Below, piece by piece: positions 6,487 through 20,398 of a stretch of DNA of 36,185 nt. The position numbers were made by a program, and so were the translations under genes. Numbering within the stretch: the first letter of the stretch is position 1; every line of letters starts with the position of its first letter. Origin of the DNA: a virus; the IMG/VR virus record IMGVR_UViG_3300044638_004783, positions 1 through 36,185 of that record. The stretch is one strand, 5' to 3'. Below the pieces are notes generated by a model, which had not been told where the DNA came from, did not search any database, and worked only from the letters and a program-made list of their open reading frames with translations.

Positions 6487-6891
6487 TTAAGATTCCAGCT
6501 TTTGCTGTTGTAGTAGTGTTTCTTGAGTAAGCCTGCGACTACCCAATTCTGCGCATTTTTTAGTTAGTTCTAGAAAAGCTCTTAGCTCTCCAGTTCTAAA
6601 TTTGTAATAAGGAGAGCTTTTTAGAATTGAGCTACTACGCTCTCCTCTGTGTATGATCATGTCTATTTCTTGACCGCGTGCGTGATAAGCAGTAGCAACT
6701 TCCATCATAGACAAATAAGGGCTAGATATTGGAGAAGGTTCTCTTCCCAATAAAATATCAACATATCCATCTATCTCGTGTTCTAATTCTTCTAAAGAAG
6801 GAAGTCCATACTCTGTTTGTACTTCAGTTAAAGTTTTACTGAACTGCATGTCTTTCTGCATTGGTTTTCTAATACTGACTGCAGGACTCAT
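6487..6891 (-). CDS. Hypothetical protein, coupled to the Cas4-like nuclease
   Basis: A 134-residue, mostly helical protein. It contains EVATAYHARGQEIDMIIHRGER and a C-terminal LELTKKCAELGSRRLTQETLL segment that could be a coiled helix. The ATG overlaps the stop of the nuclease gene by four bases (ATGA), so the two are likely co-translated and may work together. No catalytic motif was recognised. Confidence 0.6.
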   Translation of the reverse strand: MSPAVSIRKPMQKDMQFSKTLTEVQTEYGLPSLEELEHEIDGYVDILLGREPSPISSPYLSMMEVATAYHARGQEIDMIIHRGERSSSILKSSPYYKFRTGELRAFLELTKKCAELGSRRLTQETLLQQQKLES

Positions 6892-7646
6892 TTAGGCCAC
6901 CCTTCGTAAGTAAAACATACGTCTTTAAAATCACAGTAATTGTAAGCCATGCCTTCTTTATTGATACACTTAGGCAACAAAGGTGGCAATACTTCGTTGC
7001 TTATGGACTCAGCTAAACCTAGCAAAGTGTCAGTTATTTCTTTAATAATACTATCATTTCTATAAACTCTAAATTCGCGCCATTCTTGTGTGTTTTTGTC
7101 TTCATAAATAGCTGAATACTTTTCTAGATCACCCATTAACATGTATGCGTGCATTTGATAAATGTGCTCTTCTTTTGGTCCATAGGCCAATACTTGTGAG
7201 TAGCCTCTAGAATTGATACTTTTAAATTCAAAGCCAGTATCATCGTATAAAATACCGTCTGCAGTGCCTTCCAGCAATAATTCTGGAGCAGACATAGGTA
7301 CTTCGGCAGCTTTTAACCAGCCCTCAGTTATTCCAGCCATTTGCCATTTCAAGTGCAAGAAGTTACCTGTGTGGAATATATTTGCTTGCTTTTCAGAAAC
7401 TCTTTGCTCATATGGAATTTTTAGATATTTGAATATTCGCTTTCTATCACAACTTCCAGTATCTGATCCTCTAAAAGCTAGTCTTCTAGCCCTATTGCCA
7501 CCAACTGAAGAGGACAATGCTTCCCCAGCAAATTTGATAGCTTCTTCGCTATAAATGGCGTTTGAATGGTTTTCCAACCAATCTGCGTGCCTCATAGTAA
7601 CTGCTAGTTCTTCTTCAATTGTCTTAGCTAGCGTTGATAACTTCAT
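6888..7646 (-). CDS. Cas4/RecB-like PD-(D/E)XK exonuclease with Fe-S cysteines
   Basis: A 252-residue protein. Motifs in order: an N-terminal SCDRKR Cys (about residue 69), EGTADGILYD with the first catalytic Asp (about 129), FEFKS with the E-x-K pair (about 138-140), QMHAYM (the QxxxY-type motif), then three C-terminal Cys in PKC-x11-C-x5-C. One Cys before the nuclease core and three after it is the layout of Cas4 and AddB-type [4Fe-4S] nucleases. A role in recombination or DNA-end processing during replication is likely. No CRISPR array is present. TAATG coupling links it to the upstream gene. Confidence 0.72.
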   Translation of the reverse strand: MKLSTLAKTIEEELAVTMRHADWLENHSNAIYSEEAIKFAGEALSSSVGGNRARRLAFRGSDTGSCDRKRIFKYLKIPYEQRVSEKQANIFHTGNFLHLKWQMAGITEGWLKAAEVPMSAPELLLEGTADGILYDDTGFEFKSINSRGYSQVLAYGPKEEHIYQMHAYMLMGDLEKYSAIYEDKNTQEWREFRVYRNDSIIKEITDTLLGLAESISNEVLPPLLPKCINKEGMAYNYCDFKDVCFTYEGWPK

Positions 7647-7861: not shown

Positions 7862-8171
7862 AATGTCTTCTCAAGTAGTGGTTAGTTCCTTGGTATACGA
7901 CTTTTCCATTTTCTTTAGTTACATATCCATCTATCAGAAGACCAGCTTCATATGCTTGTCCTCCATCGCTCCATGCATGGTGCTCTCTGCATAGATTAAT
8001 CTTGTGGTAGGTCTCACCAACCTCATCTAAAATTGCACCACCACGAGCCCTAGTAAGCATGTGATGGGATTCAGTAGGTTGTTTCCAACATCTGCACCAC
8101 ACTTCATTAACCCACAGCATTGCTTCGCATCCATCACTCATCTGATAACCCTTCAAATGCCCTATTTTCAT
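7848..8171 (-). CDS. HNH endonuclease-like protein
   Basis: A 107-residue protein. The core ESHHMLTRARGG, followed by about 15 residues and NLCREHHAWSDGG, gives the HNH pattern of a His pair, Asn and a C-x2-HH element; WCRCW upstream may supply Zn-binding Cys. I chose ATG at 8171, with GGGAAG six bases upstream, over the in-frame TTG at 8183. It overlaps the polymerase gene by about 38 bases. Roles range from homing-type endonuclease to a replication or packaging nuclease. Its lone position inside an operon argues for a normal gene rather than an invading homing element. Confidence 0.65.
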   Translation of the reverse strand: MKIGHLKGYQMSDGCEAMLWVNEVWCRCWKQPTESHHMLTRARGGAILDEVGETYHKINLCREHHAWSDGGQAYEAGLLIDGYVTKENGKVVYQGTNHYLRRHYGQS

Positions 8172-10764
8172 AGAGCTTCCCAAAAGTTCCTACTTCCATA
8201 TCTCCAGTCTCTAAATATGGTTTAGTACCAGATACTTTGGTAAGTCTGGCAAACTGCTTGGTGCTTTCATAACCATCTTCTGGTCTAGCAGCAACAATCT
8301 TTTTTGCCGAAGCAGGGCCAAGACCCTTGATAGATCTCAAACCTTTTCTTATGTACTTACCGTTTTTAGAGATGGTGTAGCTTTCATTAGATTCGTTTAC
8401 ATGAGCTATTTTGATCTTGATATTACGTGCTCTAGTAGCAGATACGTAGTTATCTTCTTTTGGAGAGCCAGATGAAACATCAAGCAAAGCAGTGTGAAAT
8501 TCAACTGGGTAGTGAACCATTAGATATGCGCATCTGTAAGCGGTCACTCCGTAAGCCATTGAGTGGGCTTTGTTGAAACCATAAGCAGCAAATCCTGTAG
8601 CAGATTCCCATATGAACTCGTAATCATCAGAATTGAATCCATAGTCATCACATAGTTGCTTGATCTGTCGCTCAAATCCCTGAATAACATCTCCAGCTCC
8701 ACCAATATTAGAGTTTGAAGCCTTAACTGCCTTCAGAAACTTAGTTAAATCAACTGCCTCTAGCCCTATCTCTCTAAGTACGGAGATAACTTGCTCCTGG
8801 AACAAGAAGATTCCTTGAGTATCATTGGTCGTAGCCATAAGGAACTCATGTCTCTGAGGTATTTTTGTCTTCTTGGCTCTTCTAGACAAATACGTTTCCG
8901 TAGCGCCAGAGTTCATGGTTGCTGGTCTAAATAAAGCCATAGCGTCCACAACATCGCGTAGTTTAGTGGGCTTCAGCTTAGATATTTCACGCTTGGTAGT
9001 CCAGCCCTCTAATTGGAAAACACCGTCAGTATCACCTTTAGATATAGCCGTAAACGTTTTACTATCATTTAGTGGAATCCAATCTAAACCTTCACTAAAA
9101 TCTCTTCCTAGCATCTTAATAGTCTTGTTAATCACAGTTAAGGTTTTAGATCCTAAAACATCAAGCTTAACCATTCCAAAGTCTTCAATATCGTCCATTG
9201 GATACTGAGTAACCATTGTTTCGCTGCTTGCTACCCACATAGTTGGAATCAACTTGTCAAATTCCGATTTAGTAGTAGTCACCACTAAGCCAGCAGCATG
9301 AGTTCCATAAGAAGAAATTGCGTTGTTATCGGCAAGCTTAAATAACGCGTTCTTTTCTTCAGAAGGTATTTGATTCCATTCCTGCAGAACAGCACCCTGT
9401 CTACGCTTAGACGCGTAATACCTGACTCTAATAGATCCCTTGCCACTTTCATCATCCCCTGTTAAAGAATGGGTAAGCCAGGTGCCAATTTGAGTGACAG
9501 CAAATCTTTCTGATAGCCAAGCAATTAACTTATCACGCTGTTCGTGTTCTACGTCTAGGTCCACATCTGGTGGTTTAGTTCTGTCTTTAGAGATAAATCT
9601 TTCAAAGGATAAGCCATACTTAATTGGATCTACTTGAGTGATCTTCAACAACCAGCACACTAACGAACCAGAAGCAGATCCACGAGTAGTAGTGTAAACA
9701 GTGTTGTTAGCACACCAGTCAGTAACTTCAGCAACTAGATTTAGATAGCCAGCCATTCTAGTGTGCTCAATTACTTCCAATTCTTCTTGTAAACGCTGTT
9801 GATAAGCAGGCTTAAGAAGATCTCTTTTTTCCAATTCTAGGTAGCAACGGTCGCTAATTTCCTTTAGAGGATCTTCCACAGTGAAAGGAATATTGTAAGA
9901 GTACGAATCCAGCTCTTTAATTTGCAGCGTGTGAGAATCAAGCAAATCAGATAAACCTTCAGTTCCTGCTAAAAGTCTTCTTTCGTTGTGGTGATCAACA
10001 AACCATTCGGTGTCTGCTAGATGGAACCCATCTCCTGGGAACACAGCATCTTCTGAGTCGCTACCATAAGCAACTAATCGTTTTAACGTCTCATGGACAA
10101 CTTTGTCGTGCTGGTCGCAGTAGTGGCTATCTTGAGTCAGAATAGTTGGAATGCCCAATTCGGTGGCTAAATCTAATAAAATATCTGCTACAGAATCGTC
10201 AGTTAGTCCGTTACCATGATCAATATTGTGGTTCTGTAGCTCAACGTAAAACTTATCTCCAAACCATTTAGCGTAGGAGCACAGGATGCTCTTAGCACGA
10301 TCCATGTCTCCGGCTGCTATAGCTTGGACTACAAAGCCGAAATAACAGCCTGAAGTGCCTGCTATGCCCTTTAAAAGACCTTGTGAGCTTAGTTCTGCTA
10401 AGTCGTGCATATCCAACAAAGGCTTATTGTAGAAATTGACGTTAGACATACTACTTAGATTACAAAGATTGTTATAGCCCTCAGTGCTGTAAGCAACCAC
10501 ACACATATGGTGTCTTTTGGCCTTTTTATCATCTCTGTTATTAACTATATAAAGTTCTGAGCCAGGAAAGGGCAAAATACCTGCTTGCTTGCAGGCTTTA
10601 TACAACTGAGCAGATCCAGCCATGTTCCCGTGGTCTGTTAGACCAAGAGCAGGCTGACCATAACCAACGACTGTGTTTACCATGTCTTGAACACGTGGCA
10701 AAGCGTCATTTGCGCTGAACTGACTGTGGGAATGAAGATTCCAGATCTTCTTTTTGATAATCAC
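8134..10764 (-). CDS. dnaE: DNA polymerase III alpha subunit (replicative, PHP-type)
   Basis: An 876-residue C-family polymerase. An N-terminal PHP domain has intact-looking metal motifs: NLHSHSQFS, GLTDHGNMAG, a GSELY Glu and LTQDSHY. The palm has PPDVDLDVE (two catalytic Asp, about residue 410) and GMVKLDVLGSKTL (third Asp). YGFNKAHSMAYG is the conserved finger motif. A helix-hairpin-helix GLRSIKGLGPASAKKI lies near the end. It lacks the OB and tau-binding C-terminus of the roughly 1160-residue cellular DnaE. An intact PHP site suggests built-in proofreading, as in actinobacterial DnaE1. The start must be GTG at 10764: an in-frame TAG lies four codons upstream, and the PHP motif begins at residue 8. 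No Shine-Dalgarno is present; a tRNA-like element ends one base upstream. Confidence 0.93.
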   Translation of the reverse strand: MIIKKKIWNLHSHSQFSANDALPRVQDMVNTVVGYGQPALGLTDHGNMAGSAQLYKACKQAGILPFPGSELYIVNNRDDKKAKRHHMCVVAYSTEGYNNLCNLSSMSNVNFYNKPLLDMHDLAELSSQGLLKGIAGTSGCYFGFVVQAIAAGDMDRAKSILCSYAKWFGDKFYVELQNHNIDHGNGLTDDSVADILLDLATELGIPTILTQDSHYCDQHDKVVHETLKRLVAYGSDSEDAVFPGDGFHLADTEWFVDHHNERRLLAGTEGLSDLLDSHTLQIKELDSYSYNIPFTVEDPLKEISDRCYLELEKRDLLKPAYQQRLQEELEVIEHTRMAGYLNLVAEVTDWCANNTVYTTTRGSASGSLVCWLLKITQVDPIKYGLSFERFISKDRTKPPDVDLDVEHEQRDKLIAWLSERFAVTQIGTWLTHSLTGDDESGKGSIRVRYYASKRRQGAVLQEWNQIPSEEKNALFKLADNNAISSYGTHAAGLVVTTTKSEFDKLIPTMWVASSETMVTQYPMDDIEDFGMVKLDVLGSKTLTVINKTIKMLGRDFSEGLDWIPLNDSKTFTAISKGDTDGVFQLEGWTTKREISKLKPTKLRDVVDAMALFRPATMNSGATETYLSRRAKKTKIPQRHEFLMATTNDTQGIFLFQEQVISVLREIGLEAVDLTKFLKAVKASNSNIGGAGDVIQGFERQIKQLCDDYGFNSDDYEFIWESATGFAAYGFNKAHSMAYGVTAYRCAYLMVHYPVEFHTALLDVSSGSPKEDNYVSATRARNIKIKIAHVNESNESYTISKNGKYIRKGLRSIKGLGPASAKKIVAARPEDGYESTKQFARLTKVSGTKPYLETGDMEVGTFGKLYENRAFEGLSDE

Positions 10765-10765
10765 G

Positions 10766-10847
10766 TGCCAGAGCTAGGAATCGAACCTAGACAGGTGGAC
10801 AACTGTTCCTGATAGAAATGCTGGGACGGAGCTTTCTATCCTCTGGC
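10766..10847 (-). ncRNA. tRNA-like element without a canonical anticodon arm
   Basis: An 82-base element. The acceptor stem GCCAGAG/CTCTGGC is a perfect 7 bp. The T-arm is CTAGG/CCTAG around TTCGATT (canonical T-loop), with discriminator A and no encoded CCA. Where D and anticodon arms belong, element bases 8-37 form an 11-bp hairpin with one bulged A (GATAGAAA+GCT, loop CCGTCCC). Bases 42-57 may form ACAG/CTGT with an 8-base loop TTGTCCAC. No 5-bp stem with a 7-base anticodon loop can be drawn. It starts 7 bases after the ssb stop and ends 1 base before the dnaE GTG. The acceptor/T-arm minihelix is the part read by RNase P and RNase Z. Confidence 0.62.
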
Positions 10848-10854
10848 TGCTTCG

Positions 10855-11571
10855 TTAAGAAGCGTTCAGAATCAAGCTAATGAGCTTAGACTTCGTGGAA
10901 GCCTCTTTAATGCTCTTTGGCTCAATTTCTAATTCAATAGCAACATTATGTAAAGCCGGAATCGTCATCTTAAACAGATCTGATTCATCAATGATTTTAG
11001 TGTCATTGCTGACACTTTGATCAAAAGGGACAACATCATCCTCTACAACTGCTTCAGTGTTCTCAGTAATTGTGATGCCACCAAACTTGGCTTCCCAAAC
11101 AGAACTAAGAATTTTATCCACGTCAAGCAAAGTATAGTCAGCGACATCAACTTCGTACTTCTCGCCCTGCTCAACATCATATTCGGTGTCTAACCCAGCT
11201 CCCGAACGGATAATAACATAGTCACGGTTCAACAACGTGTCGTCATTACGCTGAGCACGCGTTACCAAACGGTTGTACAGGCTGACTGGGATCTTGTAAG
11301 CCTTAACAACTCCGGTGGAACGCTCAATAGCATTTACGCCGAACTTACGTGAAGCTGAACGTACTTTTTCGTCATTGCTTTGGCAACAAGGGCAAGTGCT
11401 TTTATCACGGGTGCAAGGAACAGAACCTCCATCGTACCAGTGCTCCCAGTACTCTCGGAAGTCTCCAGTCTCTTGAAGAAAACGGATCTTAGTGTCTCCA
11501 GTCTTGAACGTAGCAAGCCAATCGCTCTTTGCTGACGTTTTTTCAGAAGCTGCAGTAGTGAATCTAGCCAT
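10855..11571 (-). CDS. Single-stranded DNA-binding protein (gp32-like, zinc)
   Basis: A 238-residue protein. The N-terminal half has FLQETGDFREYWEHWYDGG followed by VPCTRDKSTCPCC: a His and three or four Cys that look like a structural zinc site, as in T4 gp32-type proteins. YKIPVSLYNRLVTRAQ and RDYVIIRSGAGLDTEY complete the core seen in actinophage ssDNA-binding proteins. The C-terminal third is acidic, as usual for partner binding. An AAGGA site lies 8 bases before the ATG. It directly precedes the tRNA-like element and the polymerase, as expected of a replisome gene. Confidence 0.75.
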   Translation of the reverse strand: MARFTTAASEKTSAKSDWLATFKTGDTKIRFLQETGDFREYWEHWYDGGSVPCTRDKSTCPCCQSNDEKVRSASRKFGVNAIERSTGVVKAYKIPVSLYNRLVTRAQRNDDTLLNRDYVIIRSGAGLDTEYDVEQGEKYEVDVADYTLLDVDKILSSVWEAKFGGITITENTEAVVEDDVVPFDQSVSNDTKIIDESDLFKMTIPALHNVAIELEIEPKSIKEASTKSKLISLILNAS

Positions 11572-20247: not shown

Positions 20248-20321
20248 GGGGCGGTAGCTCAGCTGGTCAGAGCAGCGGACTCATAATCCGTCGGTCCTGG
20301 GTTCAAGTCCCAGTCGCCCCA
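20248..20321 (+). tRNA. tRNA with CAU anticodon (Met, or Ile2)
   Basis: A 74-base cloverleaf. Acceptor GGGGCGG/TCGCCCC; D-arm GCTCAGCTGGTCAGAGC; anticodon stem GCGGA/TCCGT with loop CTCATAA (CAT); T-arm CTGGG/CCCAG around TTCAAGT; discriminator A; no CCA. The CAU anticodon could be elongator Met or, if modified to lysidine, Ile for AUA codons. An initiator is unlikely because the acceptor end is fully paired. Confidence 0.92.
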
Positions 20322-20322
20322 C

Positions 20323-20395
20323 ACGCCTGTAGCTCAGGGGATAGAGCAACAGACTTCTAATCTGTTGGTCGTTGGTTCGAATCCAACCAGGCGTA
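20323..20395 (+). tRNA. tRNA-Arg(UCU)
   Basis: A 73-base cloverleaf. Acceptor ACGCCTG/CAGGCGT; anticodon stem ACAGA/TCTGT with loop CTTCTAA (TCT); T-arm GTTGG/CCAAC around TTCGAAT; discriminator A; no CCA. It reads AGA codons, frequent in this AT-rich phage. It starts one base after the preceding tRNA. Confidence 0.95.
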
Positions 20396-20398
20396 CTG

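What the first reader, a model, noticed from the sequence alone, without database searches (positions are those of the whole stretch)
10766..10847. tRNA-like element placed one base upstream of the dnaE start codon
Seen directly: a perfect 7-bp acceptor stem and a canonical T-arm, but an 11-bp hairpin where the D-arm belongs and no 5-bp anticodon stem with a 7-base loop. The element lies 7 bases after the ssb stop and ends one base before the dnaE GTG. An in-frame TAG inside the T-stem means the polymerase cannot start earlier, and there is no Shine-Dalgarno. Known: acceptor plus T-arm minihelices are minimal substrates of RNase P and RNase Z, and actinobacteria translate leaderless mRNAs well. 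Inference: host tRNA enzymes cut the ssb-dnaE transcript here, separating ssb from a nearly leaderless dnaE mRNA and so uncoupling their levels.
Basis: partly seen in the sequence, partly recalled or inferred. Interest (0 to 1): 0.8.

Follow-up and report, generated by a model that had tools for sequence, protein, structure and literature searches.

The report
Dummy tRNA abutting phage polymerase gene
A family of uncultured bacterial viruses keeps a tRNA-shaped but non-decoding RNA packed against the start of its DNA-polymerase gene, probably so that the cell's tRNA-cutting enzymes release a polymerase message that begins directly at its start codon.

Summary
On the minus strand, 10847-10766 folds as a 7-bp acceptor stem, an internal hairpin, a canonical T-arm and discriminator A. 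One C follows, then the dnaE GTG; there is no Shine-Dalgarno and no -10 box. Divergent relatives (dnaE 53-61% identical) carry the same element with entirely different stem sequences that still pair. It is found in at least 13 lineages of one dnaE clade, and in two relatives a genuine tRNA (Leu, Gln) occupies the slot. In seven lineages a GTG/ATG starts exactly after R73-C74. A fixed-offset test of 29,162 candidate starts gave ten hits; eight are dnaE. Where a small gene intervenes, the element stays upstream of it and an SD follows directly after C74. The phage's true tRNA genes also end at C74. In Propionibacterium and Streptomyces, encoded CCA ends are cut between the two Cs, so such a cut here would give an exactly leaderless 5'-GUG mRNA. 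Best reading: a phage t-element, a dummy tRNA used as mRNA punctuation. Conservation is shown; cleavage and leaderless translation are inferred. It matches no Rfam family above threshold. Known kind (organellar and archaeal t-elements), new variant.

The parts
10766..10847 (-). tRNA-like element (dummy tRNA), nucleotides 1 to 73 by tRNA analogy, 82 nt
   Evidence: sequence and fold; homologous elements in relatives
10841..10847 (-). acceptor stem, 5' strand GCCAGAG
   Evidence: perfect 7-bp complement of 10767-10773; covaries in relatives
10811..10840 (-). internal hairpin, 11 bp with one bulged A, where the D and anticodon arms would be
   Evidence: MFE fold; not conserved in size or sequence in relatives
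10791..10806 (-). weak 4-bp hairpin ACAG/CTGT
   Evidence: in the MFE but not in the centroid structure
10774..10790 (-). T-arm CTAGG-TTCGATT-CCTAG; carries the in-frame TAG (10776-10774)
   Evidence: invariant G53-C61, T54 and A58 across 13 elements
10767..10773 (-). acceptor stem, 3' strand CTCTGGC
10765..10766 (-). discriminator A73 and encoded C74; inferred cut after 10765
   Evidence: R73-C74 in all dnaE-adjacent lineages; the window's four true tRNAs also end A-C; C74 in 387 of 399 CCA-less tRNA genes in scanned viral contigs
8134..10764 (-). dnaE (DNA polymerase III alpha, PHP domain), GTG start directly after C74, no SD
   Evidence: N-terminus homologous in relatives
10855..11571 (-). 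upstream gene, single-strand DNA-binding protein
   Evidence: weak PHROG ssb matches; homologues upstream of dnaE in most relatives

Best explanation
The element is a phage t-element: a tRNA-shaped, non-decoding RNA cut out of the replication-operon transcript by the host's tRNA-maturation enzymes. RNase P would cut before nucleotide 1, leaving the ssb mRNA ending 7 nt after its stop codon. The host's tRNA 3' endonuclease would cut after C74. The downstream product would be a dnaE mRNA whose first codon is at its 5' end, translated by the leaderless route common in actinobacteria. Shown: a conserved, covarying acceptor plus T-arm; exact spacing R73-C74-start codon in seven lineages; interchangeability with real tRNAs; no SD and no -10 box. 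Inferred: cleavage, the enzymes, the exact cut, leaderless translation, an actinobacterial host, and any effect on gene dosage.
For: (1) Fixed-offset test, acceptor pairing not used: of 29,162 candidate starts only ten have a T-arm at the right distance plus C before the start codon; eight are dnaE (7 lineages), and their acceptors then pair 5/6 to 7/7. (2) 13 elements: 98.6% of cells paired (shuffled 59.7%), 10 of 11 pairs with double changes, slid controls 31-48%. (3) A true tRNA sits in the slot in L026 (tRNA-Leu, same A-C-GTG) and L029 (tRNA-Gln, then an SD); what tRNA and dummy share is being matured like a tRNA. (4) When a small gene is inserted (L012, L014-L016, L093), the element stays upstream of it and its SD starts right after C74. 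(5) C74 is the normal end of CCA-less tRNA genes here: all four in the window, 387/399 in scanned viral loci; P. acnes and S. coelicolor cut encoded CCA ends between the Cs. (6) All seven adjacent start codons are GTG or ATG, the only codons that work leaderless in mycobacteria. (7) No SD, no TANNNT -10 box in any lineage, no terminator.
Against: No RNA data. The host is unknown; 'actinobacterial' rests on Gordonia and Brevibacterium phages as nearest cultured relatives (35-37% identity). The cut between the Cs was mapped on tRNAs with encoded CCA; for CCA-less S. coelicolor tRNAs sites were 'within a few nucleotides downstream'. If the cut falls after N73 the mRNA would start C-GUG, not strictly leaderless. 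The element has R73-C74-G75, only part of the RCC that pairs with bacterial RNase P RNA. In L011 and L096 dnaE starts 29 and about 40 nt downstream; L094 has ordinary hairpins only. Some T-loops are off consensus (L095 TTTGAGA, L092 TCCAAGC, L011 TGCAAGC).
Confidence: 0.7

Rival explanations
1. An uncut cis-regulatory structure: the tRNA-like fold stays in the mRNA and controls dnaE translation, like a tRNA-mimicking operator or an internal ribosome entry structure.
For: Abuts the start codon with no SD; conserved structure.
Against: Acceptor sequence fully variable and middle arms not conserved, so no synthetase identity or ligand pocket; the slot can hold a normal tRNA; in five relatives the element precedes a gene with its own SD.
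Confidence: 0.12
2. The excised tRNA-like RNA is itself the product, for example a decoy for host tRNA-acting enzymes; dnaE placement is secondary.
For: The same kind of element occurs at other loci not next to dnaE (L403/L406, L410, L411).
Against: The interior shrinks to a 4-bp hairpin in L092 (45-nt element) and is not conserved; the start codon lies exactly after C74 in seven lineages.
Confidence: 0.09
3. Decaying tRNA gene: a former functional tRNA before dnaE drifting neutrally.
For: Real tRNAs occupy the slot in two relatives; the middle arms are degenerate.
Against: Eleven pairs kept with compensatory changes across dnaEs only 53-61% identical to the window's; exact spacing kept; present in nearly every member of the clade.
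Confidence: 0.05
4. An unconventional decoding tRNA, D-armless or with odd loops.
For: L011 and L096 fold into four-arm cloverleaf-like shapes.
Against: No common 5-bp/7-nt anticodon arm or anticodon; 45 to 90 nt long; not called by ARAGORN, no Rfam tRNA match.
Confidence: 0.02
5. A chance hairpin, or a dnaE mRNA made leaderless by a promoter at the start codon.
For: Actinobacteria make many leaderless mRNAs by transcription initiation.
Against: No TANNNT within 25 nt of any of the starts; fold z -4.6; cross-lineage conservation.
Confidence: 0.02

Closest known systems
t-elements of plant mitochondria
   Same: tRNA-like sequences at mRNA ends, cut by RNase P and RNase Z to define mRNA termini, not aminoacylated (PMC11658184)
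   Different: Those are described as homologous to tRNA genes and retaining typical tRNA-like structure; here a dsDNA phage element, reduced to acceptor plus T-arm, with its 3' end at the start codon. Cleavage not shown here
Haloferax volcanii t-element upstream of 5S rRNA
   Same: tRNA-like structure directly upstream of another RNA, whose 5' end tRNase Z makes (PMC4326828)
   Different: Archaeal and rRNA; here phage and mRNA, with the start codon at the predicted cut
tRNA punctuation of animal mitochondrial transcripts
   Same: tRNA excision frees mRNAs with little or no 5' leader (general knowledge)
   Different: Real tRNAs there; here mostly non-decoding dummies, and other genes of the same phage use SDs
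Acceptor-T-arm model substrates of bacterial RNase P (pATSer series)
   Same: Acceptor plus T-arm is enough for cleavage (general knowledge; pATSer used as control substrate in PMC12710915)
   Different: Laboratory constructs with a full RCCA 3' end; the phage elements have R-C-G
Rfam RF00005 tRNA
   Same: T-arm, acceptor, discriminator
   Different: 21.7 bits, below the gathering score of 29; no match for the relatives' elements

Membership tests
t-element (tRNA-like mRNA/rRNA processing signal) | tRNA-like acceptor plus T-arm fold under selection | tested here: met
t-element (tRNA-like mRNA/rRNA processing signal) | Lies exactly at the end of another functional RNA | tested here: met
   start codon directly after C74 in 7 lineages; SD directly after C74 in 5 more
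t-element (tRNA-like mRNA/rRNA processing signal) | Cleaved by RNase P and the tRNA 3' endonuclease | not testable with these tools
   needs RNA or enzyme assays
t-element (tRNA-like mRNA/rRNA processing signal) | Not aminoacylated / no decoding role | tested here: inconclusive
   no anticodon arm in most elements; charging not testable
tRNA (RF00005) | Cloverleaf with anticodon arm recognised by tRNA models | tested here: not met
   (true tRNAs only in L026 and L029)
Leaderless mRNA | RTG start codon at the exact mRNA 5' end | not testable with these tools
   sequence compatible: GTG/ATG only, no SD, no -10 box
tRNA-mimicking translational operator | Conserved identity elements of a synthetase or ligand pocket | tested here: not met
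   acceptor and middle arms variable

The most novel reading that the evidence does not exclude
A lineage of probably actinobacterial phages has turned a tRNA gene into a dummy tRNA whose only job is punctuation: host tRNA maturation, not transcription initiation, creates an exactly leaderless mRNA for the replicative polymerase, so polymerase synthesis depends on tRNA-processing activity. The element is modular (also at L403/L406, L410 and L411) and represents an undescribed class of phage RNA.
Probability: 0.5. Interest if true: 0.86.

Novelty: new variant of a known kind. Interest (0 to 1): 0.77.

Why it matters
If true, leaderless mRNAs can be made in bacteria by tRNA-type processing, not only by transcription starting at the codon or by toxin nucleases. 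It would also show a virus keeping tRNA mimics as operon punctuation, as organelles and archaea do. Natural series from true tRNA to a 45-nt minimal element would let one ask what the tRNA-maturation enzymes really need, and the system is testable with simple reporters in laboratory actinobacteria.

Tried and rejected
Rfam scans: no family; the window's sub-threshold tRNA score only. Weak Plastid-ycf2 and mir-725 matches on the opposite strand, below cut-off, rejected. Nucleotide search in isolated phages: no match with the window region; short chance matches and tRNA-Trp T-arms with the L015 element. Genome contigs: only about 25-30% identical dnaEs. Cultured phages with the nearest dnaE: no tRNA annotated in the regions fetched; the scanner found no element upstream of dnaE in L008-L010. 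Covariance model: MAFFT misaligned the 5' acceptor strand because the interior is so variable, so no model was built; a fixed-offset statistic was used instead. The A5 covariation alignment holds elements picked by pairing with the interior removed, so it is partly circular; one search is the non-circular test. Promoter/terminator scan: nothing above chance. Papers on phage tRNA-like leaders or dnaE: none found in the held library; most subscription journals are not held.

Full report
OBSERVATION. The window is an uncultured virus record of 36,185 bases. Minus-strand 10847-10766 reads GCCAGAG-GATAGAAAGCTCCGTCCCAGCATTTCTATC-AGGAACAGTTGTCCACCTGT-CTAGG-TTCGATT-CCTAG-CTCTGGC-A, then C, then the dnaE GTG at 10764. 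It folds as described, MFE -30.2 kcal/mol, z -4.6. ARAGORN finds four true tRNAs elsewhere in the window but not this one. The Rfam tRNA model gives 21.7 bits against a cut-off of 29. ssb ends 7 nt upstream; the in-frame TAG in the T-stem leaves GTG as the only start. Most window genes have a recognisable SD; dnaE has none. ssb matches SSB families only weakly; dnaE is clear.

RELATIVES. Two near-identical copies (L001, L002/L090) give no independent test. A profile search gave relatives with dnaE 36-61% identical. Upstream of dnaE they show the same architecture with different letters: L013 GGTTGC...GCAACC, L017 ACATTG...CAATGT, L020 CCCTT...AAGGG, L092/L104 CCCTGT...GCAGGG, L095 CCCCGC...GCGGGG, L096 CGGCTC...GAGTCG, L011 CCCGGTG...CATCGGG. 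Each is closed by a 5-bp T-arm with a 7-nt loop. The interior ranges from a single 4-bp hairpin (L092, 45 nt) to two arms (L011, L096). In L026 a normal tRNA-Leu(CAA), and in L029 a tRNA-Gln(CTG), sit in the slot; L026 has the same A-C-GTG junction, L029 an SD and then GTG.

WHERE THE ELEMENT SEEMED TO BE MISSING. In L012, L014, L015/L091, L016 and L093 a gene of about 100-170 aa lies between ssb and dnaE. The element is there too, right after ssb and upstream of that gene (L016 has a longer gap after the region matching ssb), followed by R73-C-GGAGG and an ATG. L035 has it with a 6-nt T-loop (read by eye). In L011, L020, L092/L104 and L026 other coding sequence lies between ssb and the element. 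So the element marks a gene boundary and is not tied to ssb. On the dnaE tree the elements, and the tRNA-Gln of L029, fall in one well-supported clade of 17 rows; L026 branches outside it. Within the clade only L094 lacks it; L019's contig starts 67 nt before the dnaE match and cannot tell. Outside the clade dnaE has ordinary leaders (L022-L024, L027, L028, L105).

STATISTICS. Motif background: 98 hits in 1.32 Mb of + strand, 0.019 per 250 nt. On the 13 elements, 98.6% of cells pair against 59.7% shuffled; 10 of 11 pairs have double changes; slid partners pair 31-48%. Those elements were chosen for pairing and their interiors were removed, so a non-circular test was made: for every ATG/GTG/TTG in the 5' part of ORFs of at least 100 aa, ask only for C at -1 and a T-arm (5 bp, G53-C61, T54, A58) at the fixed distance set by a 6- or 7-nt acceptor strand. 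Of 29,162 distinct starts ten pass. Eight are dnaE (window lineage, L013, L017, L020, L026, L092, L104, L095); the other two (L045, L264) are chance-like. The acceptor of the eight then pairs 7/7, 6/7, 6/6, 5/6, 7/7, 6/6, 6/6, 6/6 in the order L001, L013, L017, L020, L026, L092, L104, L095.

WHY ONE C. The window's four tRNA genes encode no CCA but all end A73-C74, and the C74 of tRNA-Met is followed at once by nucleotide 1 of tRNA-Arg. In the viral contigs of the pattern scan 387 of 399 CCA-less tRNA genes encode C74 (one tRNA per contig was selected by the pattern, the rest were not). Transcript maps show that P. acnes cuts encoded CCA ends 'always between the Cs' (PMC3848588) and that most CCA-encoding tRNAs of S. 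coelicolor are cut there too (PMC4681348). A cut after C74 here leaves 5'-GUG. [quoted passage not shown] CTG and TTG fail (PMC4633059). All seven lineages with the junction use GTG or ATG. P. acnes has no obvious tRNase Z homologue, so the 3' endonuclease need not be RNase Z.

ALTERNATIVES. A promoter at the start codon is unlikely: no TANNNT within 25 nt upstream of any of 15 starts, no promoter or terminator signal above chance. Neutral decay does not keep eleven covarying pairs and a fixed junction. A synthetase-type operator would need identity nucleotides in the acceptor, which varies throughout. A decoding tRNA would need an anticodon arm. A trans-acting small RNA cannot be excluded, because the same kind of element also occurs away from dnaE.

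MECHANISM. Shown: a conserved tRNA-like RNA, its exact junction, its replacement by real tRNAs. Inferred: RNase P cut before 10847, tRNA 3' endonuclease cut after 10765, leaderless translation of dnaE, actinobacterial host. Why the phage does this is open. A plausible reason is that dnaE has no SD and so would be poorly translated until the cut.

KNOWN KINDS. t-elements of plant mitochondria (PMC11658184) and of Haloferax (PMC4326828) work this way. No Rfam family matches above threshold and no paper in the held library describes it in phages. I file it as a new variant of a known kind; the defining biochemical feature, cleavage, is untested.

Noticed in passing
L403/L406, L410, L411: Elements with the same T-arm GCCCG-TTCGAGT-CGGGC, a 6-bp acceptor and R-C-G at the 3' end lie at loci with no detected similarity to window proteins or dnaE, mostly upstream of genes with their own SD. 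The element seems modular.
   Followed up: partly
L287, L294, L329, L288, L366: True tRNAs in other viral contigs are directly followed by an ORF starting at A-C-GTG; L287 and L294 share a related protein there (VNSFWWAGPIAFRN..), so tRNA-made leaderless mRNAs may be wider spread.
   Followed up: partly
window 20248-20396 and viral contigs: CCA-less tRNA genes almost always encode C74 (387/399); tRNA-Met and tRNA-Arg of the window abut with no spacer.
   Followed up: partly
L012, L014, L015, L016, L093 between ssb and dnaE: A gene of about 100-170 aa sits between element and dnaE in these relatives, with differing N-termini, as if this boundary accepts cargo genes.
   Followed up: no
L414 (Microbacterium phage Rie18): dnaE is annotated as two adjacent ORFs.
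   Followed up: no
window 6888-7646: Cas4-like exonuclease family match (PHROG 1706, 1990).
   Followed up: no
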